DNA of 64,000 nucleotides from a virus, in IMG/VR virus record IMGVR_UViG_3300020202_000001, positions 62,001 to 126,000 of that record; one strand, written 5' to 3'. This document shows, piece by piece, positions 1,253 through 62,776 of the stretch (positions are counted from its first letter, which is position 1; every line of letters begins with the position of its first letter). The notes under the pieces were generated by a model that had not been told where the DNA came from, ran no database searches, and saw only the letters and a list, made by a program, of their open reading frames with translations. Both the position numbers and the translations under genes were made by a program.

Positions 1253-1274
1253 TCCAAAAACCGGTTTTGAGAAG
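1251..1274 (+). repeat. Dispersed AT-rich dyad, copy 1
   Basis: Sequence GATCCAAAAACCGGTTTTGA followed by GAAG. It starts inside the stop codon of the spike gene and ends 15 bases before the next start codon. The centre AAAACCGGTTTT is a perfect 12-bp palindrome. It stands out from the GC-rich surroundings and recurs at eight other sites in the window. Confidence 0.9.
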
Positions 1275-1289
1275 CAAGAGGAGACCCCC

Positions 1290-2525: not shown

Positions 2526-2995
2526 AGGCTGCGGTCGAGGGCGTGGTCGACTTCAGGGTCGCCCGCGTCCTCGACCCGAAGTGGTGGCGGTACCTCAGGG
2601 TGAAGCTCGAAACCCTGGAGCGCCGAGGAAAGGAGAAGGCGGTCAACGCCGCGTTCGCCTACCACCTGGCCCTGGTCGCCAACAGCGGACTGACCGAGGA
2701 GAGCTTCGAGAAGTGTCAGGCGGCGGCGAAGGAGCGGTACTTCGATCTGCTCGGCACGATCCGCCCGTGGGAGGGCAAGAGCTTCGTGGAACGCAAGGCC
2801 GCGGAGTTCAAGGACGCCCGGCAGATGTACATCGACGCGACCGGGTTCGACCCGCTGGACCCGGCGTTCAAGGCGTACGAGGCCCAGCAGATCGAACGGC
2901 TGCTGGCCGGCGAGTTCGACATCGTGGACGAGGACGCCGAGGCCGAAGCGGCCGTGGTCGATCGCCTGCGGGCGAAGATTATGAAGGGAGCGTAA
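2492..2995 (+). CDS. Tail assembly chaperone extension (-1 frame)
   Basis: About 167 residues, helical and charged, starting around V-L-A-I-E-A-A and ending just before the tape-measure start. No ATG occurs near its beginning; a GTG at 2543 is possible but has a poor ribosome site. The likeliest route is a -1 frameshift from the preceding gene to make a long chaperone fusion, as in many tailed phages. The frame is also open far upstream, but that is expected by chance in GC3-rich DNA and is not evidence of coding. Independent initiation remains possible. Confidence 0.5.
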   Translation: MEGDRGAVLAIEAAVEGVVDFRVARVLDPKWWRYLRVKLETLERRGKEKAVNAAFAYHLALVANSGLTEESFEKCQAAAKERYFDLLGTIRPWEGKSFVERKAAEFKDARQMYIDATGFDPLDPAFKAYEAQQIERLLAGEFDIVDEDAEAEAAVVDRLRAKIMKGA

Positions 2996-2998
2996 GAG

Positions 2999-6706: not shown

Positions 6707-6708
6707 AC

Positions 6709-7179
6709 ATGCCGATCCTCTTCGACGGAGCCCCGGGCCGCGTGATCGCCCTGCAGGACCCGGCCCTGCAGGGCGTGGTCCCGCTCGTGAAGCCGAACCC
6801 GGCGATCACGTTCCAGGGGCAGAAGAGCCTCATCACCCGGCTGACGATCGCCCAGGAAACGAACCACCAGTTCCTGCACGCGCTCGGCGGCGACATCTTC
6901 ATCTACGTGTTCGGCGACCGCATCGGCCAGCTGACGATCTCCGGCCTGGCCGTCAGCAAGGACTGCGACGGCGGGGGCGACAGCGAGCACGGGTTCGAGA
7001 AGATGCTGAAGTATTACAAGGACAACAAGCTGTCCAAGCGCCGCGAGCCGATGACCGTGATGATCGGGCAGACGCCCGTCACCGGGTTCCTCGGCGGGAT
7101 GACGGGCGGCGTGTTCGACCACAAGCTGCTCCTGATGCAGTGGGACCTGACGCTCTTCCTGCTGCCGGAAAGGGACTGA
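6709..7179 (+). CDS. Small tail protein, unknown (tape-measure adjacent)
   Basis: 156-aa mixed alpha/beta protein starting two bases after the tape-measure stop, with GGAGG upstream of its ATG. The middle contains a short hydrophobic beta segment (residues about 60-75) followed by a basic stretch. In contractile-tail phages the slot between tape measure and hub often holds an LysM-like or gp53/gp48-type baseplate-tube adaptor; nothing in the sequence proves which. It is likely a virion or tail-assembly protein by context. Confidence 0.55.
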   Translation: MPILFDGAPGRVIALQDPALQGVVPLVKPNPAITFQGQKSLITRLTIAQETNHQFLHALGGDIFIYVFGDRIGQLTISGLAVSKDCDGGGDSEHGFEKMLKYYKDNKLSKRREPMTVMIGQTPVTGFLGGMTGGVFDHKLLLMQWDLTLFLLPERD

Positions 7180-7180
7180 C

Positions 7181-7975
7181 GTGTACAACCACCTGCGCAC
7201 GCTGCTGCTGAACCAACACCCCGCCGCCCCCGACTGGGCGATCGGCGAGGAGGCCGTGCCGGCGACGTTCCGGCCGGTCAACCTGCCCGCGTACCTCGAC
7301 GAGGTGCGAGCCAGGCTGTTCGGCGTCGCCCCCGACCGGTCGATGCTGAACTACCGGCTCGCCCAGTACACCCGGCTGCTGCACGCGTCGGCGCTGGGCC
7401 AGTACGTCTACGACCTCGACCCCCGCGTGACGTACCTCGGCACCGACCGCACGGACCTGTTCGGCACGGCCGCGTTCGAGCCGGCCGTCACGCAGACCAA
7501 GGGCCGCCGCCCGCTGGTCGTGCAGGGCGACCCGGCCGCCCCGGACCCGACCGGGCAGTCCTACCACGCGTACCGGATCGAGCAGCTCGACGGCGACACG
7601 ATCTCGGTCGGCGAGGACCACCCGACTTCCAAAAACCGGCTTTTGGATCTCGCGTTCGCCGGCGGGCTGTCGGCCCCGGTGCCGCTCGGTGACAGCGGGT
7701 ACGTCGCCCTGGTCCCGCAGGAGGCGGCCGGCACGCGGTGGCAGGTTACGTTCCACGCCCGCCCGCAGTGGGACCTCGGGCAGATCGCGGCCGCCCTCCG
7801 CGTCAGCGGGGAGCCGACGCTGCTGCAGCTGTTCGGGGCCGCCCCGGCGGAGCCGTTCCTGACGTTCCGCGACCTGTTCTTCGACCACCCGGAGCTGCCG
7901 TACCGCCTCGGCGGCCTGCTGCTCGCGGTGGCCTACCGCTCGGACGCCGTCTGGAGGGCCAATGGCCAGGGATAA
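7181..7975 (+). CDS. Tail/baseplate protein, unknown, carrying an in-frame dyad repeat
   Basis: 264-aa protein; the GTG start lies one base after the preceding stop with AAAGGGA upstream. Residues about 1-60 are helical and the rest is beta-rich. Its C-terminus overlaps the next gene by 14 bases. A copy of the dispersed dyad (7627-7650) is read in frame as a short Thr-Ser-Lys-Asn-Arg-Leu-Leu stretch near residue 152, apparently a loop. Probably a baseplate or tail-hub accessory protein given its neighbours; no family recognised. Confidence 0.6.
   Translation: MYNHLRTLLLNQHPAAPDWAIGEEAVPATFRPVNLPAYLDEVRARLFGVAPDRSMLNYRLAQYTRLLHASALGQYVYDLDPRVTYLGTDRTDLFGTAAFEPAVTQTKGRRPLVVQGDPAAPDPTGQSYHAYRIEQLDGDTISVGEDHPTSKNRLLDLAFAGGLSAPVPLGDSGYVALVPQEAAGTRWQVTFHARPQWDLGQIAAALRVSGEPTLLQLFGAAPAEPFLTFRDLFFDHPELPYRLGGLLLAVAYRSDAVWRANGQG
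7627..7650 (+). repeat. Dispersed AT-rich dyad, copy 2 (inside a gene)
   Basis: TTCCAAAAACCGGCTTTTGG then ATCT. This copy has the best arms, TCCAAAA and TTTTGGA around ACCGGC. Unlike most copies it is inside a coding sequence, in frame, with no start codon nearby. Confidence 0.8.
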
Positions 7976-9656
7976 GAACTACGCGTACACGACGCTGTCC
8001 GAGGAGGCGAGCGTCCGGCTGCGGATCGACGGCTCGGTCGGCGGCGTCGGCGGGGCGGTCGGCTTCGAGGTCGTCAGCGTCACCGGCAGCTTCGCGATCA
8101 ACCAGGTGCCCGAGTGCGTGTGCGTGCTCGCGGTCGGCCGCAACGCCGTCGACGGCCAGCAGCTCGCCAAGATCCACTCGGCCGCCCGGTCGATGAAGCA
8201 GATGGTGAAGGCGAAGGTCTACTTCCGGCCCCGCGGCGAGTTCAAGCCGGACGGGACGGAGTGGCCGCGGGGCGAACAGGTCGTGTTCGACGGGTACTTC
8301 GTCGGCATGAGCTACCAGAAGGTCGGCGGCAAGGTGAACGTCTGCGTGCACCTGATCCACTGGCTCAGCGACCTCGCGTTCAGCTCCAGCCTGTCGAGCG
8401 TCAGCCACGTCTCGAACCCGGGCAGCATGACGTTCCCGGCCGCCCTGGAGCCGATCACGCCCGGCGCGGGCGGCGGCGGGGAGGCCGTGTTCCTGAGCAA
8501 CCTCGTGCCGCACCAGGCGATCGAGCCGCTGATCCAGAGCGACCTGTGGGAGGCGATCAAGGTCCTGATGTGCGGGATGAGCACGTTCGAGGGGTTCAAC
8601 CCGATCTGCGGGGCCGGCGGCATCGGGCTGGAGCAGATCAAGAAGAACGACCGGGCCAAGGAGGCCCTGAAGAAGATCGAGGGGCCGGGCGGCGACTGCA
8701 CGCTGGAGTACAAGTACGGCAAGGCCCTGGCGCTGACGCTCGGGCTGGCCGGGCAGGGGTGGGCCGGCATCGCCCAGGCGATCGGCGAGATCCCGGTCAC
8801 CGGCCTGTGGAACATGACGCTCTGGGACGTGCTGGTCGGCGGGTACTGCCAGCAGTTCGGGCTGATGGTCTGCCCCGGCGTCGACCGGGCGGTCGTCGCC
8901 GCCGACTGCCCCGGGTTCCGCGGCCCGACGTGGCGGGAGATCCCGCCGAACGAGTACGAGTTCACCGACCAGTCGGCCATGCTCCCCCGCCCGCTCCGCG
9001 CCGTCGTGTCGCACGGGGCGTCGTACATGGAGGCCGGGGCGAACTTCTACGCGGCCGCCCAGGGGGTCAGCACCTGCGTCAGCGGCGTGTTCGCCTCGAA
9101 GAGCGTCGAGGACGCGGACGGCGTCGTGATGTACACCCAGGTGCCCCGGTGGGTCGCCGAGATCACGACGAGCGGGGTGAACGCCGGCACGGTGGTCGGG
9201 GCCAAGGACAACAAGCCGATCAAGACGGCCACGACGCCGGACGGCGGGCAGAAGGGGCCGGACAAGCCGCCGGTCGAGATGAAGGACGACGCCCAGAAGG
9301 TGCTGGACAAATACGCCCAGATGGTTTTCATCCGCGAACAGCTGCGCGGGCGTAACGGCACGATCAGTGGTAAACTACGGTTCGACGTCGCCCCGGGCTC
9401 CAAGCTGAAGCTCAAGGGGAGCCCGGAGGTGTTCATCGGCGGCGAGGACGAGCTGGCCGACGACCTGTACGTCGAGGTGAACCGCGTCACCTTCGAGATC
9501 AACTGCGAGGGCCGGCGGGCGGCCACCGCGTTCATGCTCTCGGCCGCGAGGAACGAGACGGAGAACCAAGAGGAGCGGACGAGCACCGCGGAGCACCCGT
9601 TCTACGGCGCGAACGTCCTCAAGGGGTTCCCGCTGCTGCCGGAGCACGACATCTAA
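7962..9656 (+). CDS. Probable baseplate hub protein (gpD/gp27-like)
   Basis: 564-aa protein, beta-rich at both ends with a helical centre (residues about 190-300) rich in hydrophobic residues. Size and place (after the tape measure and two small tail genes, before gp25-like and J-like proteins) match the hub that seats the central spike. Residues about 410-450 are a Pro/Lys/Asp-rich linker. Around 9331-9385 several codons end in A or T, unlike the rest of the gene, including a GGTAAACT that resembles a -10 element. The hub assignment is positional; no catalytic motif is visible. Confidence 0.5.
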   Translation: MARDKNYAYTTLSEEASVRLRIDGSVGGVGGAVGFEVVSVTGSFAINQVPECVCVLAVGRNAVDGQQLAKIHSAARSMKQMVKAKVYFRPRGEFKPDGTEWPRGEQVVFDGYFVGMSYQKVGGKVNVCVHLIHWLSDLAFSSSLSSVSHVSNPGSMTFPAALEPITPGAGGGGEAVFLSNLVPHQAIEPLIQSDLWEAIKVLMCGMSTFEGFNPICGAGGIGLEQIKKNDRAKEALKKIEGPGGDCTLEYKYGKALALTLGLAGQGWAGIAQAIGEIPVTGLWNMTLWDVLVGGYCQQFGLMVCPGVDRAVVAADCPGFRGPTWREIPPNEYEFTDQSAMLPRPLRAVVSHGASYMEAGANFYAAAQGVSTCVSGVFASKSVEDADGVVMYTQVPRWVAEITTSGVNAGTVVGAKDNKPIKTATTPDGGQKGPDKPPVEMKDDAQKVLDKYAQMVFIREQLRGRNGTISGKLRFDVAPGSKLKLKGSPEVFIGGEDELADDLYVEVNRVTFEINCEGRRAATAFMLSAARNETENQEERTSTAEHPFYGANVLKGFPLLPEHDI

Positions 9657-9671
9657 CGCACGGAGGCGTCG

Positions 9672-9908
9672 ATGTGTTTCGTGGACAAGGACGAGCCCGA
9701 GCGGAGCCGCTGGTTCTCGGACGTCGTCATCGTGCTGGCGTGTCTGCTCGTGTTGCCGTTTCTGGCCGTAGGAGGCAAGGATGCCCGGGACTCTGACGAC
9801 CCAAGTCGCCCTACCGAAGCCGCCGTCGTCCGCGACGGAGGAGCCGGACTACGACACGATCTGGAAGGACTGGAAGGCGGCCCCGCCCGACCCGGCGACG
9901 AACGCTAG
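9672..9908 (+). CDS. Small membrane protein, hypothetical
   Basis: 78 aa with GGAGG upstream of its ATG. Residues about 17-34 (V-V-I-V-L-A-C-L-L-V-L-P-F-L) form one likely membrane-spanning helix preceded by an acidic/basic N-terminus. The last ~43 residues overlap the next gene in another frame and look like chance extension. Possibly a single-pass lysis-related or membrane-anchoring protein; the function is unknown. Confidence 0.45.
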   Translation: MCFVDKDEPERSRWFSDVVIVLACLLVLPFLAVGGKDARDSDDPSRPTEAAVVRDGGAGLRHDLEGLEGGPARPGDER

Positions 9909-10539
9909 GACGCTGCGGTCGCTCGACCCGCTGATCGACCGGGCCGCCAAGACCCACGTCGGCGACGTGAACCCGCTCGTGCGGAGCCGGGCTCGCAGCC
10001 TCGCGCTGCAGTCGCTGCAGACGTACGACCCGAACAAGGGCCGGTTCCAGAGCCACTTCTACAACCAGATGCAGGGGCTCAAGCGGTACAGCGCCCAGAC
10101 CGCGCAGGGCGTGCGGGTGCCGGAGCGGGTCGTGCTCGACCGGCGGGCGCTGGACATGGCCGAGGGCGAGCTGCGGGACCGCCTCGGCCGCGACCCGACC
10201 GACGACGAGCTGGCCGACCACAGCGGGTTCAACGTCCGCCGCATCCAGAAGGTCCGGGGGTACAGCCCGGCGATGAGCCAGGGGTACTTCTCGCAGCTCG
10301 GCGAGGACGGCGGCGGGTTCGAGCCGGGCGTGAACCGCAGCACGACGGCGGCGTGGGAGCAGCTGATCCTCGACGACCTGAACCCGGTCGACCGGAAGAT
10401 CTTCGACTACCACCGGCAGGGGATGTCGAACCAGCAGATCGCGGCGAAGCTGCGGCGGAGCGCGGGCCTCATCAGCCAGCGCAAGGCCGTGATCCAGAAG
10501 CTGCTGGACCAGGAGCAGGAACTCAGCCCGTTCCAGTGA
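9781..10539 (+). CDS. Phage sigma factor, sigma-70 family
   Basis: 252 aa. Residues about 55-120 resemble region 2 (A-R-S-L-A-L-Q ... Y-D-P-N-K-G-R-F ... F-Y-N-Q-M); residues 128-160 match region 3 (G-E-L-R-D-R-L-G-R-D-P-T-D-D-E-L-A); residues about 200-245 carry a region-4 helix-turn-helix (M-S-N-Q-Q-I-A-A-K-L ... S-A-G-L-I-S-Q-R). It would direct host RNA polymerase to a phage promoter class, probably late genes. It sits inside the tail operon, so its own synthesis would rise with structural gene expression. Some phages keep their late sigma factor elsewhere; here the linkage to tail genes is notable. Anti-sigma or structural roles are less likely. Confidence 0.75.
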   Translation: MPGTLTTQVALPKPPSSATEEPDYDTIWKDWKAAPPDPATNARTLRSLDPLIDRAAKTHVGDVNPLVRSRARSLALQSLQTYDPNKGRFQSHFYNQMQGLKRYSAQTAQGVRVPERVVLDRRALDMAEGELRDRLGRDPTDDELADHSGFNVRRIQKVRGYSPAMSQGYFSQLGEDGGGFEPGVNRSTTAAWEQLILDDLNPVDRKIFDYHRQGMSNQQIAAKLRRSAGLISQRKAVIQKLLDQEQELSPFQ

Positions 10540-10543
10540 ACCC

Positions 10544-10996
10544 ATGGCACAAGCACAAGCGAAAGCCGACGTCGACCCGAACTTCGAGACCCAGGTCAAG
10601 GAGCTGCAGCAGCAGAACCAGCAGCTGGTGCCCGAGGCCCTGAAGGGCGCGCAGCCGAAGTGGCTGATGCCGAAGAAGGAGGGCTGGAGCGGCGACCTGT
10701 TCGACTGGGAGGGGATGCACAAGGCGTTCAACCGGGACAAGAGCAACGAGGACTTCAAGAAGGCGATCGAGGACGCGAAGAGCCCGGGCACGACCGGCGA
10801 CCTCGCGGTCACGACGACGCAGATCGACATCCTCGCCGTCATGGAGCGGGCGTTCCGCGCCCGGCACACGATGGGCCGCCCCCGGGCCTTCGCCCACGCG
10901 ATGGCACGCCGCAAGGGCCACGGCAACGACAAGGGGCCGCTCGTGCAGTGCCAGCTTGAGTACGTCCGCGGCCTGGTGAAGGAGAGCCGTTCATGA
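10544..10996 (+). CDS. Unknown tail-cluster protein
   Basis: 150 aa, strongly helical and charged, starting four bases after the sigma-factor stop. The N-terminus has a Gln-rich coiled-coil-like stretch (about residues 10-30), the centre is acidic and the C-terminus basic (R-A-F-A-H-A-M-A-R-R-K). It overlaps the gp25-like gene by four bases (ATGA), so the two are translationally coupled. No family recognised; probably a small baseplate or assembly protein. Confidence 0.6.
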   Translation: MAQAQAKADVDPNFETQVKELQQQNQQLVPEALKGAQPKWLMPKKEGWSGDLFDWEGMHKAFNRDKSNEDFKKAIEDAKSPGTTGDLAVTTTQIDILAVMERAFRARHTMGRPRAFAHAMARRKGHGNDKGPLVQCQLEYVRGLVKESRS

Positions 10997-11478
10997 CGAC
11001 GCAGCTCGGGAACGTCGCCGACTACCAGGGCCGCACGGTCGACCTCCTCGCCTTCCAGGGCGTGCGGGCCGCCGGCGAGGCCAAGCTCACGCACGCGCTG
11101 GTCCGGCCCGGCGAGGGCGGCGAGCTGTGCACCGGGCTGCAGAAGCTCGTGCAGCGGTGGCTGATCGAGTTCCTGACGACCCGTGGCACGATGCGGTACC
11201 TCCCGCGCCGGGGGTGCGACTTCGTCGGCCAGCTCCGCCGGAGCGAGCTGCGGACGACGGTGGACGCCACGCAGGCGTTCTACCTGTCCGCCCAGCAGAT
11301 CAAGCTGAACCTGCGGTCGGACGAGACGGCCGACACCCCGGACGACGAGGCGTTCGGGTCGGCGACGCTGGAGTCCCTGACCGTGCTGGCCGACTCGCTG
11401 ACCGTCCGCGTGAACATCACCAGCCTTGCGGGCCGGACCGCGAAGGCGATACTGCCGATCCAGGTGAGGACCGGCTGA
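10993..11478 (+). CDS. Baseplate wedge protein, gp25/gpW-like
   Basis: 161 aa. The family keeps a core in which a GT-x-x-x-x-P-x-x-G type loop follows two helices; here T-R-G-T-M-R-Y-L-P-R-R-G-C-D occupies residues about 62-75, after a helix matching the LVQRWLIEFL segment, and a beta-rich C-terminus follows. gp25-like proteins nucleate the baseplate wedge and sheath. The gene precedes the J-like wedge protein, the usual order in contractile-tail clusters. The GC-rich start is coupled to the previous gene. Confidence 0.65.
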   Translation: MTTQLGNVADYQGRTVDLLAFQGVRAAGEAKLTHALVRPGEGGELCTGLQKLVQRWLIEFLTTRGTMRYLPRRGCDFVGQLRRSELRTTVDATQAFYLSAQQIKLNLRSDETADTPDDEAFGSATLESLTVLADSLTVRVNITSLAGRTAKAILPIQVRTG

Positions 11479-11509
11479 CACGACACACCGTAGCGACAAG
11501 GAGGTCGCG

Positions 11510-33622: not shown

Positions 33623-34274
33623 GGTGTGGGCCAGCCCCGAGAGCTACGCCACGACCCTGCTGGTCCTGTTCGTGGACCGGTACGGGACCGAGGGGCTGGA
33701 GTGGCACCCCGAGACGATCGCCATGCAGGTCGGCCAGGACTTCGCGGTCGAGGTGCCGCGGGTCAACATGGACCGGCTGCTGGCGGCGATCACGCTGGTG
33801 ACGACGGACTACTTCTACAAGCGGCTGTCGGTCTTCAACGACACCTGCAACGTCCTGAGCGGCGACGACTTCAACCCGGGCGTGTACCAGCCGGCCGACG
33901 CGGCCGACTGCGCGTGGGGCACGACCGAGGCCCTGCTCATCTGCCCGCCGGACGAGGAGGAGCCGTTCACGGACGAGATCCGCCACTACGTCGGCCGCAT
34001 CCTGCGGGCCGAGGGCTACGTGCAGGCACCGGACATCCTCCGCATCGCCCTCGACGCCGACCTCTCCGACCAGGTGAGGGACACGTTCGCGGACGACCCG
34101 GAGATGTTCCAGGCCCTGCACGAGAGCCAGACCGCCAAGACGCAGGAGTGCGAGCAGCTGATCCGGGAGAACCTGGAGCGGCTGCTCACCCAGATCGAGC
34201 AGCTGCCGCTCGTCACGGGCAGCGCCGACCAGCTCCGCGACAAGCTCCGGCAGAACATCCGGCCCGGAGCTTGA
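33540..34274 (+). CDS. Hypothetical helical protein
   Basis: 244 aa; ATG with GAGGGCAAGG upstream. Helix-rich with Trp/Tyr and acidic clusters; residues about 180-244 form a Gln/Glu/Leu coiled-coil-like region. Its TGA stop lies within the TTGACA of the next promoter. Probably belongs with the preceding gene; no family recognised. Confidence 0.55.
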   Translation: MPQHQTQSYGEVSKLPPKVAPGHAKAREVWASPESYATTLLVLFVDRYGTEGLEWHPETIAMQVGQDFAVEVPRVNMDRLLAAITLVTTDYFYKRLSVFNDTCNVLSGDDFNPGVYQPADAADCAWGTTEALLICPPDEEEPFTDEIRHYVGRILRAEGYVQAPDILRIALDADLSDQVRDTFADDPEMFQALHESQTAKTQECEQLIRENLERLLTQIEQLPLVTGSADQLRDKLRQNIRPGA

Positions 34275-34298
34275 CACTTTCCCCCGTTCGGGTATTCC
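34271..34298 (+). promoter_or_regulatory. Promoter of the polymerase-fragment / AAA+ cassette
   Basis: TTGACA (34271-34276), 16-base spacer, TATTCC (34293-34298); a 71-base leader leads to the first cassette gene. The spacer contains CCCCCGTTCGGGT (34281-34293), identical to a 13-mer inside the minus-strand promoter at 60794-60823 and nearly identical to one at 50262. This shared motif is a candidate operator. Confidence 0.6.
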
Positions 34299-34344
34299 AC
34301 GCACCCAAGGTTTCCATTCAACGTACGATAAGGAGTAGCGACCC

Positions 34345-34800
34345 ATGACCATGACCGCCCGCGAGCCGAACCTCCAGAACGTCCCCGTCCCGCTCACCGA
34401 CGCCCAACGGGTCGAGAGCGGGCGGATTCGCCTGATGTTCGGCGACCCCAAGCCGGTGCTGCTGACGGCAGACTACTCGGCCGTCGAGCTGCGGCTGCTC
34501 GCCCACGCGTCCGTCCACGGCGTCGACGCCCTCGACCCGCAGGCCGCCAAGGCCCGCGACGACGAGGACGAGGACGAGGAGGACGACGAGGACGATGACG
34601 ACGGCGACCTCCTCGACGACGACGAGGAGGACGAGGACGAGGAGGACGACGAAGACGACGACCTCGACGACGACGAGGATGACGACCTCGACGACGACGA
34701 GGACGACGATCTCGATGACGACGACGAGGACGACGACGACTTCGACGACGACGAAGACGACGAGGACGACGAAGACGACCTCGACGATGACGACGAGTAG
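34345..34800 (+). CDS. DNA polymerase A motif-A fragment fused to an Asp/Glu repeat tail
   Basis: 151 aa. Residues 6-14 (R-E-P-N-L-Q-N-V-P) and 39-56 (L-L-T-A-D-Y-S-A-V-E-L-R-L-L-A-H-A-S) match the family-A DNA polymerase palm, including motif A with its catalytic Asp (Asp43) and the D-Y-S-x-x-E-L-R signature. Everything else of a polymerase is missing: no motif B, motif C or exonuclease. From residue 72 to the end the protein is almost only Asp and Glu in D-D-E-D-type repeats. AAGGAG lies 11 bases upstream. It cannot be an active polymerase alone. It could be a split-polymerase piece, a DNA-mimic decoy, or a relic captured by an acidic tail. The next genes form one transcript with it. Confidence 0.8.
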   Translation: MTMTAREPNLQNVPVPLTDAQRVESGRIRLMFGDPKPVLLTADYSAVELRLLAHASVHGVDALDPQAAKARDDEDEDEEDDEDDDDGDLLDDDEEDEDEEDDEDDDLDDDEDDDLDDDEDDDLDDDDEDDDDFDDDEDDEDDEDDLDDDDE

Positions 34801-34815
34801 AGGAAGAGGAGAGCC

Positions 34816-35073
34816 TTGCTTCTAGTCGAAGGGACCATCCCCATCCACCCCGTGACCACGGCGGCCGCGACGGCCGACCCCAAGGAAGCGGCCCGACGCT
34901 TCCTCGCCGAACACCCGACCGCCCGGCTTGAGAGCATCGGCGGCAAGATCGTTCGGGGGGTGTGCCAGCGCTGCGGCACCCCGGTCATGGAAGACACGAA
35001 GGGCCACGCGTACGACCCCGAGACCGAGGCGTACACCTGCCCGAGCTGCAACCAAGGAGACAACCGGCCATGA
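34816..35073 (+). CDS. Zinc-ribbon protein
   Basis: 85 aa. Two Cys pairs, C-Q-R-C near residue 50 and C-P-S-C near residue 76, about 25 residues apart, form a rubredoxin-like zinc ribbon. The N-terminus (residues 1-40) is a basic/hydrophobic helix without motif. The TTG start follows an AAGAGGAGAG site. It overlaps the DUF1257-like gene by four bases (ATGA). Probably binds nucleic acid or a protein partner within the cassette. Confidence 0.6.
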   Translation: MLLVEGTIPIHPVTTAAATADPKEAARRFLAEHPTARLESIGGKIVRGVCQRCGTPVMEDTKGHAYDPETEAYTCPSCNQGDNRP

Positions 35074-35591
35074 GCCATGTGACCAGCTTCGAGCCCGACG
35101 AGAAGGACCAGCAGATCCGGGACCTCCCGGCCCTGGCTCGCGCCGCCGAGCGGTGCGGCCTGGAGTTCCGCGAGGGCCAGACCAGCTTCCACACCTGGGC
35201 CACCGACCACGGCCGCCTCGTCGGCGACTGGCCGGTCCCGCAGGGGTACACCCAGGCCGACATCGTGGGCGGGCAGTGCCTGCACGCGATGGGCATCCCC
35301 GGCAAGAAGGGCGTCCGCGGGACCGAGGGCTACGAGATCGGCATCGTCGAGAGCAAGAAGAACCCCGGCACCTACAGCATGCTCTTCGACTTCTTCAGCA
35401 GCTCGCTCTCCAGCAAGGTGAGCAGCGGCGCGAAGGACGCGAAGGGGAACGTGAAGCCCGACAAGCTCCACATGTTCTACCAGATCGAGGCGGCCCGCAC
35501 GGTCGCCAAGGCCAAGGGGTTCTCGTTCCAGGAGATCCCGCAGCCGGACGGCTCGATCACGGTGAAGTGCGGCAAGTCCGCCACGTTCTGA
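35070..35591 (+). CDS. DUF1257-like (Ycf35-related) protein
   Basis: 173 aa. Begins M-S-H-V-T-S-F, followed by a helix-beta pattern with I-R-D-L-P-A-L-A-R-A-A-E-R-C-G-L-E-F near residues 17-34 and Y-E-I-G-I-V-E-S ... G-T-Y-S-M-L-F-D-F-F near 88-108, closely reminiscent of DUF1257 proteins, which start M-S-H-F and end with a Y-x-I-G-x-V ... Y-x-L-V-x-D pattern. In cyanobacteria and planctomycetes such genes commonly sit beside a Ycf46-type AAA+ ATPase and a small DUF2997 protein, exactly as here. Biochemical role unknown; the match is by pattern and context. Confidence 0.6.
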   Translation: MSHVTSFEPDEKDQQIRDLPALARAAERCGLEFREGQTSFHTWATDHGRLVGDWPVPQGYTQADIVGGQCLHAMGIPGKKGVRGTEGYEIGIVESKKNPGTYSMLFDFFSSSLSSKVSSGAKDAKGNVKPDKLHMFYQIEAARTVAKAKGFSFQEIPQPDGSITVKCGKSATF

Positions 35592-35617
35592 GCGGCCACG
35601 GCCGCGGCACCCCGGTA

Positions 35618-35641
35618 GATCCCAAAACCGGTTTTTAGAAG
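35618..35641 (+). repeat. Dispersed AT-rich dyad, copy 6
   Basis: GATCCCAAAACCGGTTTTTA then GAAG: the A and T runs are shifted by one relative to copy 1, keeping the dyad. It lies between the DUF1257-like and DUF2997-like genes, 11 bases before the next GTG; the ribosome site GAGGAG overlaps its end. A short GCGGCC/GGCCGC hairpin precedes it. Confidence 0.85.
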
Positions 35642-35652
35642 AGGAGCACCCC

Positions 35653-35865
35653 GTGGAAGGTCCCCACATCCTGATGAAGTTCGCGATCGGCAAGCCGGTC
35701 GAGGTCCGCGTGAACGGCGTGAAGGGCTCGGCGTGCCGGGCGTTCTCCAAGCCGTTCGAGGACGCGATCGGCGGCAAGGTCGTCGCCGACGTCCCCACCG
35801 CCGAGATGACTCAGCCCGCGACGGTCGGGGCCGAGGTCAAGGCCGGCGGCGGCAAGACGTTCTGA
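35653..35865 (+). CDS. DUF2997-like small protein
   Basis: 70 aa. The stretch V-E-V-R-V-N-G-V-K-G-S-A-C-R-A-F (residues 17-32) followed by F-E-D-A-I-G-G-K-V matches the DUF2997 pattern in which a beta-strand with V-x-G-x-x-G-x-x-C precedes a helix ending E-x-A-L-G. Such proteins accompany DUF1257 and Ycf46-like ATPases. The GTG start has a good GAGGAG site. Presumably a ubiquitin-like or adaptor-sized partner; function unknown. Confidence 0.6.
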   Translation: MEGPHILMKFAIGKPVEVRVNGVKGSACRAFSKPFEDAIGGKVVADVPTAEMTQPATVGAEVKAGGGKTF

Positions 35866-35911
35866 CCCCACGACCCGCGCGAGACGTACCCGACGACGAC
35901 GACGACACCAC

Positions 35912-35940
35912 GCCGGCCCCGGGCTCCACCTGGGGCCGGC
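35912..35940 (+). terminator. Hairpin between DUF2997-like and AAA+ genes
   Basis: GCCGGCCCC / GGGGCCGGC, nine perfect pairs around an 11-base loop, followed by TCGCTTCCCG rather than a T run. It may lower transcription into the ATPase gene or stabilise the upstream mRNA. Confidence 0.55.
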
Positions 35941-35965
35941 TCGCTTCCCGAAGGTAAGTAAGCAC

Positions 35966-37549
35966 ATGGCTCGACTGAAAAAGGAAATCAAGGAGGCCAT
36001 CGCGGCCGCCTTCAGCGGAATCTGGATCAACAGCTACGAGCACGAGGACGCCCTCGCCGCCATCTCCGAGGCGTGCAAGGAGCACACCTGGCAGCTCATC
36101 ACCTGGGACCCGGAGTTCGGCGTCCGCAGCCCCGAGGACAAGAACCCGACCCCGAGCGACGACGAGCCGAACCCGGCGATCGCCCTCCACCAGCTGCTGA
36201 AGCTGGACACGGAGGAGAACCGGGCGATCCTCGTGCTTCGCAACGTGCTGCCGTACCTGGCCAGCGCCGAGGGCCGCGTCGGCAGCCCGCGGTTCCTGCA
36301 GGTCCTGCAGCGGACGATCGAGCAGGGAGCCCAGGACGGGCACCACGTCGTCATCCTCTCCTACGACAACCTCGCGGTGCCGCGCGAGCTGGAGAAGATG
36401 GTCTACATCATCGACCACGACCTCCCCGACGCCGAGGAGCTGCACGACCTGATGGCGTCGGTCGAGGACAACGAGGCCAAGCTCCCGGCCAAGGACAGCC
36501 CCGAGGCCAAGCTGCTGACCGACGCGGCGGCCGGGCTCACGCGGCTGGAGGCCCTCGGGGCGTTCAGCAAGAGCAAGGCGAAGCACCGCATGCTCAAGCC
36601 CGACGTGCTCTGGGAGCTGAAGGCGAAGATGCTCCAGAAGACCGGGCTGCTGGAGATGCTGACGAAGAAGACGGTCGCGGCGAACGACACGCCGATCGGC
36701 TTCTCGATGCTCGGCGGCCTGAACGTGCTCAAGGGCTTCTGCAAGAACATGTTCGACAGCCCGAACCGCAGCAAGAAGGTCCGGCCGCTCGGCGTCATGC
36801 TGGTCGGCCCGTCCGGCACGGGCAAGTCCGCGTTCGCCACCAGCCTCGGCGACGAGATCGGGTGGCCGACCGTGCGGCTCGACCCGGGCAAGCTGATGGG
36901 CAGCCTGGTCGGCGACACGGAGGCGAACACGCGGCGTGCCCTGAAGACGATCGACGCGATGAGCCCGTGCGTCCTGATGGTCGACGAGGTCGAGAAGGCC
37001 CTGGCCGGCAGCGGCGGCGGTGCCCACGACAGCGGCGTCGGTGCCCGCCTGCTCGGGTCGCTGCTGACGTGGATGAACGACCACACGAGCGAGGTCTTCA
37101 TCATCATGACCTCGAACGACATCACCGGGCTGCCGCCGGAGTTCACCCGGGCCGAGCGGTTCGACGGCATCTTCTTCCTCGACCTCCCGGGCAAGGAGCA
37201 GCGGGAGATGGTGTGGGACATCTACACCACCTACTACGCCAAGCACGGGCTGACGAAGGAGATGATCGCCGAGCGGCCGGACGACGAGAACTGGACGCCG
37301 GCGGAGATCAAGGCGAACTGCCGGCTGGCGACGCTGCACAACACGACGCTCAAGGAGGCGTCGAAGTTCATCGTCCCGGTGTACAAGACGAGCAAGGAGA
37401 AGATCGTCGCCCTGCAGCAGTGGGCGACGAACCGCACGCTCAGCTCCGACTACCCGGGGATGTACGACATCAACGGGCCGAAGAAGCTGGTCACGACGAT
37501 GGAGGAGGGTGCCCCCGCCCGCCCCCGCCGCCGCGTCACGCGGGCGTAA
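35966..37549 (+). CDS. Ycf46-like AAA+ ATPase
   Basis: 527 aa. An N-terminal half without motif (helical, with W-D-P-E-F at residues 48-52) precedes an AAA+ domain with Walker A G-P-S-G-T-G-K-S (281-288), Walker B V-L-M-V-D-E-V (336-342), sensor-1-like I-M-T-S-N-D-I and an R-F-D-x-I-F-F-L-D-L-P element. The order and spacing match Ycf46-type AAA+ proteins of cyanobacteria, plastids and planctomycetes, whose neighbours are DUF1257 and DUF2997. ATP-dependent remodelling of an unknown partner is likely. ATG start; GAAGG is 13 bases upstream. A hairpin follows the gene. Confidence 0.8.
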   Translation: MARLKKEIKEAIAAAFSGIWINSYEHEDALAAISEACKEHTWQLITWDPEFGVRSPEDKNPTPSDDEPNPAIALHQLLKLDTEENRAILVLRNVLPYLASAEGRVGSPRFLQVLQRTIEQGAQDGHHVVILSYDNLAVPRELEKMVYIIDHDLPDAEELHDLMASVEDNEAKLPAKDSPEAKLLTDAAAGLTRLEALGAFSKSKAKHRMLKPDVLWELKAKMLQKTGLLEMLTKKTVAANDTPIGFSMLGGLNVLKGFCKNMFDSPNRSKKVRPLGVMLVGPSGTGKSAFATSLGDEIGWPTVRLDPGKLMGSLVGDTEANTRRALKTIDAMSPCVLMVDEVEKALAGSGGGAHDSGVGARLLGSLLTWMNDHTSEVFIIMTSNDITGLPPEFTRAERFDGIFFLDLPGKEQREMVWDIYTTYYAKHGLTKEMIAERPDDENWTPAEIKANCRLATLHNTTLKEASKFIVPVYKTSKEKIVALQQWATNRTLSSDYPGMYDINGPKKLVTTMEEGAPARPRRRVTRA

Positions 37550-37590
37550 CCACACGCGACCGAACGACAGGTAGCCCTGTCAAGGAAGAC

Positions 37591-37620
37591 GGGCCACGGC
37601 GCACCACCGCGCCGTGGCCC
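37591..37620 (+). terminator. Strong terminator-like hairpin
   Basis: GGGCCACGGCGC / GCGCCGTGGCCC, 12 perfect pairs around ACCACC, closing the AAA+ cassette. No T run follows, so termination may need Rho or the hairpin may act as an mRNA end-protector. Confidence 0.6.
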
Positions 37621-37645
37621 GCTGCGTTAGCAGACGGAGACCGTG

Positions 37646-39202
37646 ATGACGATGACGGCCAAGAAGCCGCTACCCAGGCTGGCCCCCGAGGGGCCAACCC
37701 AGAAACCACAACAGAGCGACGCGGACCGCCAGCGGAAGGCCCGCGTCGCCAAGCTCGCGAGCGAGGTGGCGACCACCACCGCCGAGAACGACGTGACCCT
37801 GACCCAGGCCGAGGTCAGCGAGGCGATCGAGATCTGCCGGGGCGTGTACAAGCTCCGCGGCGAGGACGGCCTGCAGCAGCTGAAGGGCGCGAAGATCACC
37901 GGCCGCGTCCTGATCGGGAAGCACCGGGAGCACGGCAACAGCGTCGAGGCGATGCTGCAGTCGCTGTTCCCGTCGTTGTTCGACAAGGTCGCCGGCGTCG
38001 ACGTGGACGCCGAGGCCAAGAAGCTGATGGCCGAGTGCGGGGCCGTGAAGATCACCTGGTCCTGGTTCCGCACCGGGATCAAGGTCGACAAGGCCTCGAA
38101 GGCGGCCATGGCGACGGCGGCCGGCACGACCGACAGCGGGTTCAGCGCGAACAAGCGGCTGATGGGCTCCACCCACCCGACGATCAAGGAGGCGAACGAG
38201 CTGCGGGGCCGGATCACCGGCTACGTCCGCGGGATCTCGCTCCCGGTCACGAAGCTCGGGGAGGCCGGCGGCAAGAAGAAGGAGGGCGGCGTCGTCCTGA
38301 TCCGCAAGAAGGACCTCGCCGACTTCGAGGAGCGGATGACCGCGTTCATCGCCGAGCTGAAGACGATGGAGCAGAAGGTCAACGACGCGATGCCCTCGAT
38401 CAAGGAGGCGGACCGCCAGCGGCTCGGCGAGCTGTTCAAGGAGGGCGACTACCCGCCGGCCGTGCAGCTCCGCATGGGGTACTACGCGGTCAACCTCGAA
38501 CCGCCGGCGTACCTGGAGAAGTTCGCCCCGAAGATGTTCGAGCGGGAGCGGCGGAAGGCCGAGGGCTGGTGGCAGGGCGTGTACGAGAACGCCGCCGCCG
38601 AGTTCATGGAGGAGTTCAAGGCGGTCATCGGCACCTGGGTCGAGGCCCTCGGCCCGATCGTCAAGATCTACCCGGACGAGGAGCACAAGCTCGCCCGGCT
38701 GAGCGGGGCGGAGGTCCGCCAGCGGATCACGAACAAGGAGGACCCCGACGTCCCGGTCGGCAAGGTGCAGCTCGTCGTCCGGTACAAGAAGCCGGGCGAC
38801 AAGAACATCACGGAGGAGACGCTCGCGCCGATGACGACGGCCGAGTACGCGGACCTGAAGCCGAACGAGACGGCCGACAAGTGCCGGACGTTCAAGAACA
38901 GCACGGTCGAGAACCTGCTCGACATGGTGACGAAGTTCCGCACGCTCGGGGCGACGATCTCCGCGAGCAAGGACTTCGCCGGGCTGGTGGACGAGATCGA
39001 GTCCCAGGTGAAGAAGGCCGGCAACAAGGCCGTCGACATCGGGGACGAGCTGCGGGTCAGCAAGAGCTTCCGCGGCACGATCCACGCCCTGATGCAGCAG
39101 GCGTCGGACAAGCTCGCCGGCGAGATCCAGACGTTCACCAAGCGGCGTCGCAAGGTGGACACGACCATCATGGCCGACGACCAGGTCGAGGCCGAGGAGT
39201 AG
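37646..39202 (+). CDS. Large helical protein, unknown
   Basis: 518 aa. Mostly alpha-helical; residues about 35-90 have a heptad-like pattern, and residues about 210-330 contain repeated acidic/basic helices around E-G-W-W-Q-G-V-Y-E-N-A-A. ATG at 37646 (six bases after GGAG) is preferred over an in-frame GTG three bases earlier. No catalytic motif recognised. It follows the AAA+ cassette after a hairpin and may start a new transcript. DUF3150-like proteins were considered but the match is not convincing. Confidence 0.55.
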   Translation: MTMTAKKPLPRLAPEGPTQKPQQSDADRQRKARVAKLASEVATTTAENDVTLTQAEVSEAIEICRGVYKLRGEDGLQQLKGAKITGRVLIGKHREHGNSVEAMLQSLFPSLFDKVAGVDVDAEAKKLMAECGAVKITWSWFRTGIKVDKASKAAMATAAGTTDSGFSANKRLMGSTHPTIKEANELRGRITGYVRGISLPVTKLGEAGGKKKEGGVVLIRKKDLADFEERMTAFIAELKTMEQKVNDAMPSIKEADRQRLGELFKEGDYPPAVQLRMGYYAVNLEPPAYLEKFAPKMFERERRKAEGWWQGVYENAAAEFMEEFKAVIGTWVEALGPIVKIYPDEEHKLARLSGAEVRQRITNKEDPDVPVGKVQLVVRYKKPGDKNITEETLAPMTTAEYADLKPNETADKCRTFKNSTVENLLDMVTKFRTLGATISASKDFAGLVDEIESQVKKAGNKAVDIGDELRVSKSFRGTIHALMQQASDKLAGEIQTFTKRRRKVDTTIMADDQVEAEE

Positions 39203-41997: not shown

Positions 41998-42201
41998 ATG
42001 AGCATCCGCAGACGCGACCCACGCAGCTTCTACCAGGGCCTGTTCTTCTCGGCCCTCGGCATCAGCGTCGGGACGATCGCCGGCGTCAAGGTGGACCCGA
42101 ACTACAACTGGATGAACGTCGCCTTCGGCGTCGGCGTCTGGCTGGCGTTCGCCGGCCTGCTGTGGTTCCTGTTCATGAAACGAACCAGGCCCAATGGCTG
42201 A
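41998..42201 (+). CDS. Small two-helix membrane protein
   Basis: 67 aa. Two hydrophobic segments, about residues 13-30 and 41-60 (V-G-V-W-L-A-F-A-G-L-L-W-F-L-F), separated by a short polar loop; positively charged N-terminus (R-R-R) and C-terminus (K-R-T-R), so both ends probably face the cytoplasm. Size and topology would suit a holin or a membrane-modulating protein, but no endolysin lies beside it, so this is only a possibility. Confidence 0.55.
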   Translation: MSIRRRDPRSFYQGLFFSALGISVGTIAGVKVDPNYNWMNVAFGVGVWLAFAGLLWFLFMKRTRPNG

Positions 42202-42550
42202 CGAGATCGTCATCAACTTCGGGCTGGGCGGCACCGTGCGTGCCGTCCACGACGACGACTACCCCTTCATGGAGGTGCACGGGTGTGCGCCTCCGCGGAG
42301 GGCGTCGCACGTCGAACCGATCCAGTCCGGCCCGCACGCGGGCTGGTGGCACGTCGACATGACCCCGCTCGGGGACGGCTTCGCGTACTGCCTGTGGCCC
42401 CCGCTGCGGACCCGCAAGGAAGCCCTCGCCGTCGAGGTCGAGCACGTACAAGCGAGGTGGGTCAATGGCCAAGGGAAAGAACCCCAAGGCGAAGCAGCCC
42501 AAGACGTTCGTCCAGCGGGTGACGGCGTGGACGCGGGGCAACCTGAGTAA
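42194..42550 (+). CDS. Hypothetical protein
   Basis: 118 aa; the first ~90 residues look like a compact beta protein with aromatic residues (G-W-W-H-V-D-M) and Cys, and the last ~28 overlap the next gene in another frame, giving a low-information tail. Overlaps the membrane-protein gene by eight bases. Function unknown. Confidence 0.5.
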   Translation: MADEIVINFGLGGTVRAVHDDDYPFMEVHGCAPPRRASHVEPIQSGPHAGWWHVDMTPLGDGFAYCLWPPLRTRKEALAVEVEHVQARWVNGQGKEPQGEAAQDVRPAGDGVDAGQPE

Positions 42551-51559: not shown

Positions 51560-53056
51560 ATGCAGCAGACGAAGGTTTACGTCGTTGTCGATCTGGGCTT
51601 CGGTGACGCCGGCAAGGGCACGGTCGTGGACTACCTGGTCCGCACGCGCAAGGCCGGCACCGTGGTCCGATTCAACGGCGGGGCACAGGCGGCCCACAAC
51701 GTGACGCTCCCGGACGGCCGGCGGCACCCGTTCAGCCAGTTCGGCAGCGGGACGTTCGTGCCGGGCGTGAAGACGTACCTCACCGAGGACGTCCTGTTCG
51801 ACCCCAACTCCCTGCTCGGCGAGGAGGCCGCCCTGCAGGCGCTGGGCGTGACCGACGCGTTCGAGCGGTTCGCGGTGCACGAGGAGTGCCTCGTCGTCAC
51901 CCCGTTCCACCGGACGGCCAACCGGCTGCGGGAGGTGGCCCGCGGCGACAAGCCGCACGGGAGCTGCGGGATGGGCATCGGCGAGGCGATGTCCGACGCC
52001 ACCGGCCGCGACAAGGTCGCGATCCGCGTCAAGGACCTACTGCTGCCCGCCGACGAGCTGCGGCGGAAGCTGGAGTGGGTGCGGCAGTACAACGAGGGCA
52101 AGGCGCTCGTCTACTACCCGAAGTACAAGGAGCACCAGCTGGGGCAGGGCCTCGACCCATCGGCCGTCGAGTGGTTCCTCGACCAGTGCCGCCGCGTGGC
52201 GGACCTGGTGACGATCGCCGATGACGCGTACGAGGACAAGCACGTCTTCAACTGCGACAGCGACCAAGTCGTCGTGTGCGAGGGAGCACAGGGCGTCCTG
52301 CTCGACGAGCACTACGGGTTCCACCCCTACACGACGTGGAGCACGGTGACCCCGCACCGGGTGCTGGAGAAGATCCGCGAGGCGAACTACATCACCGGCA
52401 CGGTCGGCGGCGAGGTCGAGCGGGTCGGCGTGACGCGGGCGTACCAGACGCGGCACGGGGCCGGGCCGTTCCCGACGTGGGAGCGGGGCGGCAAGGCGTG
52501 GGAGCACCTCGGTGCCCCCGACGCCAACAAGGAGCACGAGTGGCAGGGCAAGTTCCGCGTGGGCTGGCTCGACACCGTGCTCCTGCGGTACGCGATCGAG
52601 GCGTGCAGCGTGCCGTGGTCGACGCAGACGATCGACTGGCTGGCCGTGACGTGCCTCGACCGGCTGCACGGGGCGTTCCCGCAGGTGCCGGTCTGCACGC
52701 ACTACGTCCAGTACCGGGCGGACGCGAAGAAGGTCAGGCACCTGCCGGTCGCCCGCCGGCCCACGCTCGGCGGGCAGGAGATCCTCACGGAGTTCCTGAT
52801 GGGTGCCCAGCCGAGCCAGTTCCCCCGGTTCGACGTGAGCTACCAGGCGGTCGACTACGACCACCTGCTGCCGTACATCGAGCAGCAGGTGGGCGTCCCG
52901 GTGGGGCTCTCCAGCCGGGGGCCGACGTGGCAGGACAAGCTCGAACACGAGGCGTGGGTCGTGCACGGGATTTACGGCAAGACGAAGGTGAAACATGGGC
53001 CTGAAGAAGTCGGTCGAAATCCTGGCGAAACTCAACTTCAGTTCCGAACGCCTTAG
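51560..53056 (+). CDS. purA: Adenylosuccinate synthetase homologue
   Basis: 498 aa. G-F-G-D-A-G-K-G (residues 13-20) is the phosphate-binding loop with catalytic Asp16; G-G-A-Q-A-A-H with His46 matches the second catalytic residue; V-V-V-C-E-G-A-Q-G-V-L-L-D and T-W-S-T-V-T-P fit later substrate motifs. PurA makes adenylosuccinate from IMP, aspartate and GTP. Phage PurZ enzymes that make 2-aminoadenine precursors replace this Asp with Ser, so the retained Asp argues for PurA-type chemistry, but the loops are divergent and the real substrate is open. The last ~20 residues overlap the next gene. Confidence 0.8.
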   Translation: MQQTKVYVVVDLGFGDAGKGTVVDYLVRTRKAGTVVRFNGGAQAAHNVTLPDGRRHPFSQFGSGTFVPGVKTYLTEDVLFDPNSLLGEEAALQALGVTDAFERFAVHEECLVVTPFHRTANRLREVARGDKPHGSCGMGIGEAMSDATGRDKVAIRVKDLLLPADELRRKLEWVRQYNEGKALVYYPKYKEHQLGQGLDPSAVEWFLDQCRRVADLVTIADDAYEDKHVFNCDSDQVVVCEGAQGVLLDEHYGFHPYTTWSTVTPHRVLEKIREANYITGTVGGEVERVGVTRAYQTRHGAGPFPTWERGGKAWEHLGAPDANKEHEWQGKFRVGWLDTVLLRYAIEACSVPWSTQTIDWLAVTCLDRLHGAFPQVPVCTHYVQYRADAKKVRHLPVARRPTLGGQEILTEFLMGAQPSQFPRFDVSYQAVDYDHLLPYIEQQVGVPVGLSSRGPTWQDKLEHEAWVVHGIYGKTKVKHGPEEVGRNPGETQLQFRTP

Positions 53057-62017: not shown

Positions 62018-62776
62018 ATGCCCCTGCCCGCACTGGACGCCGTCGACCGCGAGTTCCGCCGCCCACTACACTCGTTCTTCGCGAGGCGGGTGGGCGGCGG
62101 CAACGCGGACGACGCGGTGCAAGACACGCTCCTGCAGCTCCACCGGATCGCAGACCGGTACGACCCCGCGGTCCCGCTGAGCAAGTGGGTCTTCGGGGTC
62201 GCCAAGAACATCGCGAAGCGGGTCAACCGCTCGCGCGGAAGGCACTACATGGCCAGCATCAACGGAAACGGAAACCCCAACAGCGACAGGACCGGCGTCA
62301 TCGACCCGGTCGACGAGAAGGTGCGGTCGCCGCACGACAACACGATCGCCGAGGAGCTGAAGGCGAAGATCCGCGCCGTCATCCACCAGCTGCCCGACGA
62401 CATGCAGAACGTGGTGAACCTCCACCTGCTGCAGGGGTTCTCGCAGAAGGAGACGGCGAAGCGGCTGAAGTGGGGCGACACGAAGGTCTACAACACGATG
62501 AAGAAGGCCCGGCCGCTGCTCGCCGAGCGGTTCCAGGTCGAGCTGCCCGAGACGTGGCAGGCCCGGGTCCGGGCGGGGGCCAAGGCGCGGCGAGGTCGGG
62601 CGGCGGCGACGCCCCCGCCGAGGTCGCACAAGAAGGGCGGCCGCGTCGCGGCCCTGCTCGCGAGCGTGCCGCCACCGCCGCTCCCCGCCGCCGGCCCGCT
62701 CCCGGTGCCGACGATGGTGAGCACCCTGAAGGAGATCGCCCACCACGCCGCGGCGCTGGCGAGGCTGTTGGAGTAG
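62018..62776 (+). CDS. ECF-type sigma factor
   Basis: 252 aa. Region 2 (residues about 15-75): L-H-S-F-F-A-R-R-V-G-G-G-N-A-D-D-A-V-Q-D and W-V-F-G-V-A-K-N-I-A-K-R; region 4 (about 125-170): L-P-D-D-M-Q-N-V-V-N-L-H ... G-F-S-Q-K-E-T-A-K-R-L-K-W-G-D-T-K-V helix-turn-helix. A ~70-residue Pro/Ala/Arg-rich tail follows, longer than usual. It should direct a second promoter class. Together with the sigma factor at 9781 this element encodes two specificity factors. Confidence 0.8.
   Translation: MPLPALDAVDREFRRPLHSFFARRVGGGNADDAVQDTLLQLHRIADRYDPAVPLSKWVFGVAKNIAKRVNRSRGRHYMASINGNGNPNSDRTGVIDPVDEKVRSPHDNTIAEELKAKIRAVIHQLPDDMQNVVNLHLLQGFSQKETAKRLKWGDTKVYNTMKKARPLLAERFQVELPETWQARVRAGAKARRGRAAATPPPRSHKKGGRVAALLASVPPPPLPAAGPLPVPTMVSTLKEIAHHAAALARLLE

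What the first reader, a model, noticed from the sequence alone, without database searches (positions are those of the whole stretch)
34271..37620. Phage-borne cassette of polymerase fragment, zinc ribbon, DUF1257-like, DUF2997-like and Ycf46-type AAA+
Five genes lie between a TTGACA promoter and a 12-bp hairpin. The last three match a trio (AAA+ Ycf46-type, DUF1257, DUF2997) that co-occurs in cyanobacteria and planctomycetes; its function is poorly understood. Finding it as a promoter-bounded unit with a polymerase fragment in a phage-like element suggests a portable NTP-dependent system, perhaps for host takeover or defence.
Basis: partly seen in the sequence, partly recalled or inferred. 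Interest (0 to 1): 0.8.

Follow-up and report, generated by a model that had tools for sequence, protein, structure and literature searches.

The report
Phage-borne AAA+ ATPase partner-gene module
A large bacterial virus carries a conserved set of five genes around a protein-remodelling ATPase; the same set recurs in many viruses, plasmids and Planctomycete chromosomes and often sits beside genes that look like a bacterial ubiquitin system, which hints at what these uncharacterised proteins do.

Summary
The DUF1257–DUF2997–AAA+ trio is real and lies in a 224-kb phage record, but the five-gene cassette as drawn is not a unit. Profiles trained only on cellular loci each pick one ORF in the whole virus: DUF1257 at 35070-35591 (3.9e-9), DUF2997 at 35653-35865 (3e-4), AAA+ at 35966-37549 (3e-164). 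They also pick two genes outside the finding: DUF3150 at 37643-39202 (6.7e-37) and a small conserved protein at 42194-42550 (2.5e-9). This set recurs on one strand in Planctomycetota, delta-proteobacterial and Nitrospirota loci, plasmids and dozens of viruses. The polymerase stub and zinc ribbon are not conserved, no promoter is supported, and the hairpin lies inside the conserved unit. In 10 Planctomycetota loci and one viral contig the module sits beside ubiquitin-like, E2/RING-like, JAB/JAMM and E1-like (ThiF) genes; 16 of 21 E2/RING genes found lie within 8 kb of the ATPase against about 0.1 expected. The virus itself has no detected Ubl genes. Best reading: a p97/Cdc48-like, mobile-element-borne protein-remodelling machine with dedicated adaptors; its target is unknown. 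Defence or host takeover is untested. The trio is already annotated in known phages and plasmids; the Ubl linkage appears undescribed in the literature I could search.

The parts
35070..35591 (+). DUF1257 (Ycf35-like) protein, 173 aa, starts MSH
   Evidence: Profile from cellular loci only: E 3.9e-9, sole good hit in the virus; 46/60 homologues hit PF06868; AF2 model pLDDT 79.6, no confident PDB match
35653..35865 (+). DUF2997 protein, 70 aa, with the family's invariant Cys (C28)
   Evidence: PF11211 E 6.2e-9 above cut-off; Cys invariant in 65 aligned homologues; beta-beta-alpha then disorder, low-confidence model
35966..37549 (+). AAA+ ATPase, 527 aa: N-terminal region without a detectable Walker motif, C-terminal active AAA domain (Walker A GPSGTGKS, Walker B MVDEVE, sensor-1 N, Arg-finger residues R395/R398)
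   Evidence: PF00004 E 4e-24; phrog_8638 5e-83; alignments; profile best matches in PDB are Cdc48/VCP
37590..37621 (.). perfect 13-bp inverted repeat, 6-nt loop, between AAA+ and DUF3150 genes; no T-run follows
37643..39202 (+). divergent DUF3150-family protein, 519 aa
   Evidence: Profile from cellular loci only: E 6.7e-37; PF11348 above cut-off in relatives' records L016, L018, L022, L046, L073 but not in this virus
42194..42550 (+). fam9, small conserved protein of the module (118 aa), unknown family
   Evidence: Profile from cellular loci only: E 2.5e-9
34345..34800 (+). NOT part of the conserved unit: 56-aa piece of a family-A DNA polymerase (motif A) followed by an 82-aa tail with 72 D/E
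34816..35073 (+). NOT part of the conserved unit: 85-aa zinc-ribbon-like protein (2 CxxC)

Best explanation
The locus encodes a mobile-element-borne protein-remodelling module. An AAA+ ATPase of the Cdc48/p97-like classic AAA clade would form an ATP-driven ring that unfolds or dismantles a protein complex. DUF1257, DUF2997 (with an invariant Cys), DUF3150 and fam9 would be its dedicated adaptors or substrates. In a subset of Planctomycetota loci and one viral contig the module is paired with Ubl, E2/RING-like, JAB and E1-like genes, so there the substrates may be marked or released by Ubl conjugation; this phage has only the remodelling arm. Shown: the genes, their conserved co-occurrence and order, the intact AAA motifs, and the linkage to Ubl genes in relatives. 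Inferred: physical complex, unfolding activity, adaptor roles, and the target (unknown).
For: Five profiles trained without any virus each pick one ORF in the 224-kb record, clustered at 35.0-42.6 kb. Cellular loci: 50/62 have DUF1257, 50/62 DUF2997, 47/62 DUF3150, 37/62 fam9. In 23 MAG genomes, 34/39 close AAA homologues have DUF2997 within 2.5 kb, against 1/15 for the more distant paralogues. Annotated plasmid CP114559.1 carries AAA-DUF1257-DUF2997-DUF3150-hypothetical. The AAA profile's best PDB matches are Cdc48/VCP, with intact Walker A/B, sensor-1 and Arg finger. Ubl link: ThiF 1.7e-25 and 3e-26; JAMM motif and Rpn11/CSN5 matches at E 0.006 to 0.02; 16/21 E2/RING genes within 8 kb of the AAA, about 0.1 expected; among 9 hits not used to define the family, 4 are linked against 0.05 expected. 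A cyanobacterial plasmid puts the trio beside Hsp70/GrpE.
Against: No biochemical data. The window's virus has no ThiF or Prok-JAB and no hits to the locus-built Ubl/E2 profiles, so the Ubl link does not apply directly to it. Only 16 of 39 close AAA copies have an E2/RING neighbour. The E2 label rests on the THPHV...C-x-G motif only; no solved E2 was matched. The ThiS and JAB Pfam hits are below their cut-offs. The DUF1257 model matches no known fold. The AAA N-terminal region could not be shown to be a second AAA domain (hhalign probability 6%).
Confidence: 0.5

Rival explanations
1. A conflict module (anti-host or anti-competitor defence) carried by phages and mobile elements.
For: Borne by phages, plasmids and loci with recombinases; linked in relatives to Ubl conjugation genes, and some bacterial Ubl systems are antiviral (own knowledge of Bil/Bub work); PADLOC AAA hits include IetA, 2e-17.
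Against: The IetA hits cover only the generic AAA core; no DUF member has a significant PADLOC hit; no toxin or nuclease is a constant member of the module.
Confidence: 0.2
2. A replication or partition accessory: the ATPase remodels the element's own replisome or segregation complexes.
For: HJ05-like phages have a replication-initiator-like gene next, and some related viral loci have fam21, whose profile also picks this virus's DNA polymerase, further downstream; ParB-like genes lie near the module in 7 delta-proteobacterial/Nitrospirota loci and in Catdawg; Planctomycetota loci often carry a TOPRIM/OLD-like gene.
Against: These neighbours change between groups while the DUF genes stay; the window has none adjacent.
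Confidence: 0.2
3. A redox or Fe-S-linked regulator, as the cyanobacterial setting suggests (DUF2997-ycf35-fed7 cluster).
For: PMC4284462 reports duf2997-ycf35-fed7; a Paenibacillus plasmid has AAA-DUF1257-DUF2997-4Fe-4S protein; the DUF2997 Cys is invariant.
Against: No ferredoxin or Fe-S gene was found as a constant member of the viral or Planctomycetota modules.
Confidence: 0.1
4. One reading: polymerase stub, zinc ribbon and trio form one regulated operon with a shared function.
For: Same strand, small gaps, a good ribosome-binding site before the stub.
Against: No stub or ribbon in the five nearest relatives; the ten viral relatives of the stub all lie in long polymerase-like frames; no promoter at threshold.
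Confidence: 0.05

Closest known systems
Rhizobium phage RHph_I4 (MN988552) AAA - hypothetical - DUF1257 - DUF2997
   Same: Same three families, co-directional, annotated in GenBank
   Different: Order AAA first; a ~212-aa protein sits between AAA and DUF1257; no DUF3150 detected
Candidatus Manganitrophus plasmid CP114559.1 AAA-DUF1257-DUF2997-DUF3150-hypothetical
   Same: Four named families of the module, with a small hypothetical protein next, all adjacent
   Different: Order AAA first; on a plasmid, with JAB-domain and Fic genes nearby
Planctomycetota loci L091-L152
   Same: Same gene order as the window (DUF1257-DUF2997-AAA-DUF3150-fam9), AAA about 40-46% identical
   Different: Ten also carry Ubl, E2/RING-like, JAB and E1 genes, and some a serine recombinase or TOPRIM-like gene
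Corndogvirus (mycobacteriophage Catdawg) AAA lineage
   Same: Homologous AAA, about 28% identical
   Different: Partners are fam5/fam7; fam5 never occurs with DUF1257 (0 of 22)
Bacterial Ubl/E1/E2/JAB operon types of Iyer et al. 2006 (PMC1779556)
   Same: E1-like, E2-like, JAB and Ub-like genes together, as in the Planctomycetota subset
   Different: A text search of that paper finds no AAA or Ycf genes; this virus lacks the Ubl part

Membership tests
DUF1257 (PF06868) | Match to the Pfam model | tested here: not met
   Window protein: no Pfam hit at E<=1; no hit in the virus by the genome search
DUF1257 (PF06868) | Membership through homologues | tested here: met
   46/60 aligned homologues hit PF06868; cellular-only profile picks the window ORF at 3.9e-9; MSH-type start in 82 of 91
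DUF2997 (PF11211) | Pfam match above cut-off and invariant Cys | tested here: met
   36.0 bits against 24.1; Cys invariant
Classic AAA ATPase, p97/Cdc48-like | Walker A/B, sensor-1, Arg finger; nearest profile relatives | tested here: met
Classic AAA ATPase, p97/Cdc48-like | Second, N-terminal AAA domain | tested here: inconclusive
   hhalign N versus C half: probability 6%, E 0.006
Ycf46 | Orthology to cyanobacterial/plastid Ycf46 | not tested
   No Ycf46 sequence was compared directly; a cyanobacterial plasmid AAA with DUF1257/DUF2997 matches at 30%
DUF3150 (PF11348) | Pfam match | tested here: not met
   No PF11348 hit in the window's virus
DUF3150 (PF11348) | Membership through homologues | tested here: met
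   fam4 genes in five relatives' records are above the PF11348 cut-off; window ORF in fam4 at 6.7e-37 with a cellular-only profile
Bacterial Ubl conjugation system | Ubl, E1, E2 and JAB genes present | tested here: not met
   None in the window's virus; the record may be incomplete
Known anti-phage defence system | System-specific PADLOC models | tested here: not met
   Only generic AAA hits; nothing significant for the DUF proteins
DNA polymerase A (34345-34800) | Complete palm with motifs A, B and C | tested here: not met
   Only profile positions 122-171 of 381 match

The most novel reading that the evidence does not exclude
DUF1257/DUF2997/AAA/DUF3150 is the unfoldase-and-adaptor arm of a bacterial ubiquitin-like pathway (a functional analogue of p97 with its cofactors); phages carry a stripped form to act on, or borrow, host Ubl-modified proteins, and the plastid/cyanobacterial Ycf46-Ycf35 proteins descend from the same machine.
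Probability: 0.2. Interest if true: 0.85.

Novelty: new variant of a known kind. Interest (0 to 1): 0.58.

Why it matters
DUF1257 (Ycf35), DUF2997 and DUF3150 lack an assigned function although Ycf35 and Ycf46 are plastid and cyanobacterial genes. Tying them into one conserved module with a Cdc48-like ATPase, and finding that module beside E1/E2-RING/JAB/Ubl genes in Planctomycetota and one virus, gives a concrete, testable hypothesis for the whole set: a bacterial and phage segregase that may work with ubiquitin-like tags.

Tried and rejected
PolA stub as a copy of the virus's own polymerase: rejected as a recent copy; that gene lies at about 170.7-174.2 kb, with only weak protein similarity (E 0.05) and no useful DNA similarity. 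Stub in viral contigs: ten relatives, all inside open frames of 591-1032 aa. A search of Planctomycetota genomes for the stub's source failed on the handle and was not repeated. Single-sequence scans of IMG/VR with the window AAA and DUF1257 proteins found nothing; alignments were needed. Fold search of the DUF1257 model: best Foldseek E 0.5, VIA Z 4.5, uninformative. The DUF2997 model was too poor to search. fam4 versus fam5 and the ~212-aa phage protein: no homology shown. E2-like proteins against PDB: only RING-like Zn regions and helical proteins, no E2. Literature: three open papers name DUF1257 or DUF2997 and none DUF3150; the 2011 Burroughs paper on prokaryotic RING/Ub systems is not held, so an earlier description of the Ubl link cannot be excluded.

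Full report
Observation. Pfam supports a DNA polymerase A piece in 34345-34800 (E 8e-10, residues 4-56, positions 122-171 of 381), DUF2997 in 35653-35865 (E 6e-9, above cut-off) and an AAA domain in 35966-37549 (E 4e-24); the 173-aa protein at 35070-35591 has no direct Pfam hit. The window lies in a 224,418-bp IMG/VR virus record with a baseplate-wedge gene and, elsewhere, ribonucleotide reductase, thymidylate synthase, DNA polymerase, primase, helicase and RNA-polymerase-beta-like genes. phrog_2, tried as a terminase family, found nothing.

The DUF1257 call holds by homology. A profile iterated over loci recruited the window protein together with some 40 others. Of 60 aligned homologues 46 match PF06868, best 3.6e-15. 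A profile trained only on cellular loci finds the window ORF as the single good hit among 3340 ORFs of the virus, E 3.9e-9. Of 91 homologues with a complete N-terminus, 82 begin (M/V/L/I)-S-H.

The unit is larger and different from the one described. The AAA profile brought 80 viral loci and 65 loci from bacterial genomes. The five nearest viral relatives keep DUF1257-DUF2997-AAA and then a homologue of window 37643-39202; none has the polymerase stub or the zinc ribbon. The 37643 family is DUF3150: PF11348 is exceeded in the records of five relatives, and the window ORF scores 6.7e-37 with the cellular-only profile. A further small family, fam9, is at 42194-42550 in the window (2.5e-9). Of 62 cellular loci, 50 have DUF1257, 50 DUF2997, 47 DUF3150 and 37 fam9; many contigs are short. 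Among 78 viral loci, 31 have both DUF1257 and DUF2997, and 17 also DUF3150. Another 22 have fam5 instead, never with DUF1257. An independently annotated plasmid shows AAA-DUF1257-DUF2997-DUF3150-hypothetical side by side. The trio therefore pre-exists in public annotation, also in phage RHph_I4 and on cyanobacterial and Paenibacillus plasmids.

Promoter and hairpin. No sigma-70-type site reaches the scan threshold between 33 and 43 kb. The 13-bp perfect hairpin at 37590-37621 is real and not expected by chance, but no T-run follows and it lies between AAA and DUF3150, so it does not bound the module.

The polymerase stub. Its 56 residues match motif A only, and an 82-residue tail follows of which 72 are D or E. 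It is not a recent copy of the virus's own polymerase. Its ten viral relatives are all in open frames of 591-1032 aa. I treat it as a lineage-specific gene that happens to lie upstream.

Context in cells. In Planctomycetota the module often has four further genes beside it: a small protein with weak ThiS similarity (0.003), a Cys-rich protein with a THPHV...C-x-G motif like that of E2 enzymes plus CxxC repeats, a JAMM-motif protein whose profile matches Rpn11 and CSN5 in the PDB (E 0.006 to 0.02), and a ThiF/E1-like protein (1.7e-25, 3e-26). All four occur in ten Planctomycetota loci and in viral contig L079. Nine of the ten records are titled as Planctomycetota; L104 is titled Emcibacter, yet its locus is of the Planctomycetota type. 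Across 23 genomes, 16 of 21 E2/RING-like genes lie within 8 kb of a close AAA homologue against about 0.1 expected; leaving out hits seen while defining the family, 4 of 9 against 0.05. The window's virus has none of the four. Eleven of the 65 chromosomal loci also carry a serine recombinase in the stretch held, most of them upstream of the AAA, and several delta-proteobacterial loci a gene that I read as a terminase.

Mechanism. The AAA profile's nearest solved relatives are Cdc48/VCP and the ATPase motifs are intact. I therefore propose an ATP-driven remodelling ring with DUF1257, DUF2997, DUF3150 and fam9 as adaptors or substrates (0.5). Coupling to Ubl conjugation is suggested by linkage in a subset only (0.2 as a general function). 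Complex formation, unfolding and targets are inferred. Rivals are conflict/defence, replication/partition, and redox/Fe-S roles.

Limits. The E2 assignment rests on a motif; DUF1257 gave no fold match; the DUF2997 model is poor; Ycf46 orthology was not tested. The literature search covers open papers only.

Noticed in passing
window 51560-53056: Adenylosuccinate synthetase family gene (PF00709, 8e-64) in a phage genome. It keeps the GDAGKG Asp, so it cannot be called a PurZ (2-aminoadenine genome) enzyme from this alone.
   Followed up: no
L079 (IMGVR_UViG_3300031949_000005, 167,640 bp), 1080-11492: A viral contig with Ubl, E2/RING-like, JAB and E1-like genes upstream of AAA, DUF3150 and DUF1257 genes, so the Ubl pairing also occurs in a virus.
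   Followed up: partly
window 34345-34800: Polymerase motif-A stub with an 82-aa tail that is 88% D/E; origin unknown, possibly captured from a host-like PolI.
   Followed up: partly
L002 and some of L020-L059 (AAA loci of the Corndogvirus type): A second AAA lineage whose constant partners are fam5 and fam7, never DUF1257; function unknown.
   Followed up: partly
L091-L152, cluster 2 (for example L104:7102-7944): TOPRIM/OLD-like gene recurrent beside the module in Planctomycetota; no Pfam hit.
   Followed up: no
window 62018-62776: ECF-type sigma factor (PF04542 3e-8, PF08281 2e-7) in the phage record.
   Followed up: no
L178 (Pseudanabaena plasmid NZ_CP112875.1): DUF1257, DUF2997 and AAA genes close to grpE and an Hsp70 gene.
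   Followed up: no
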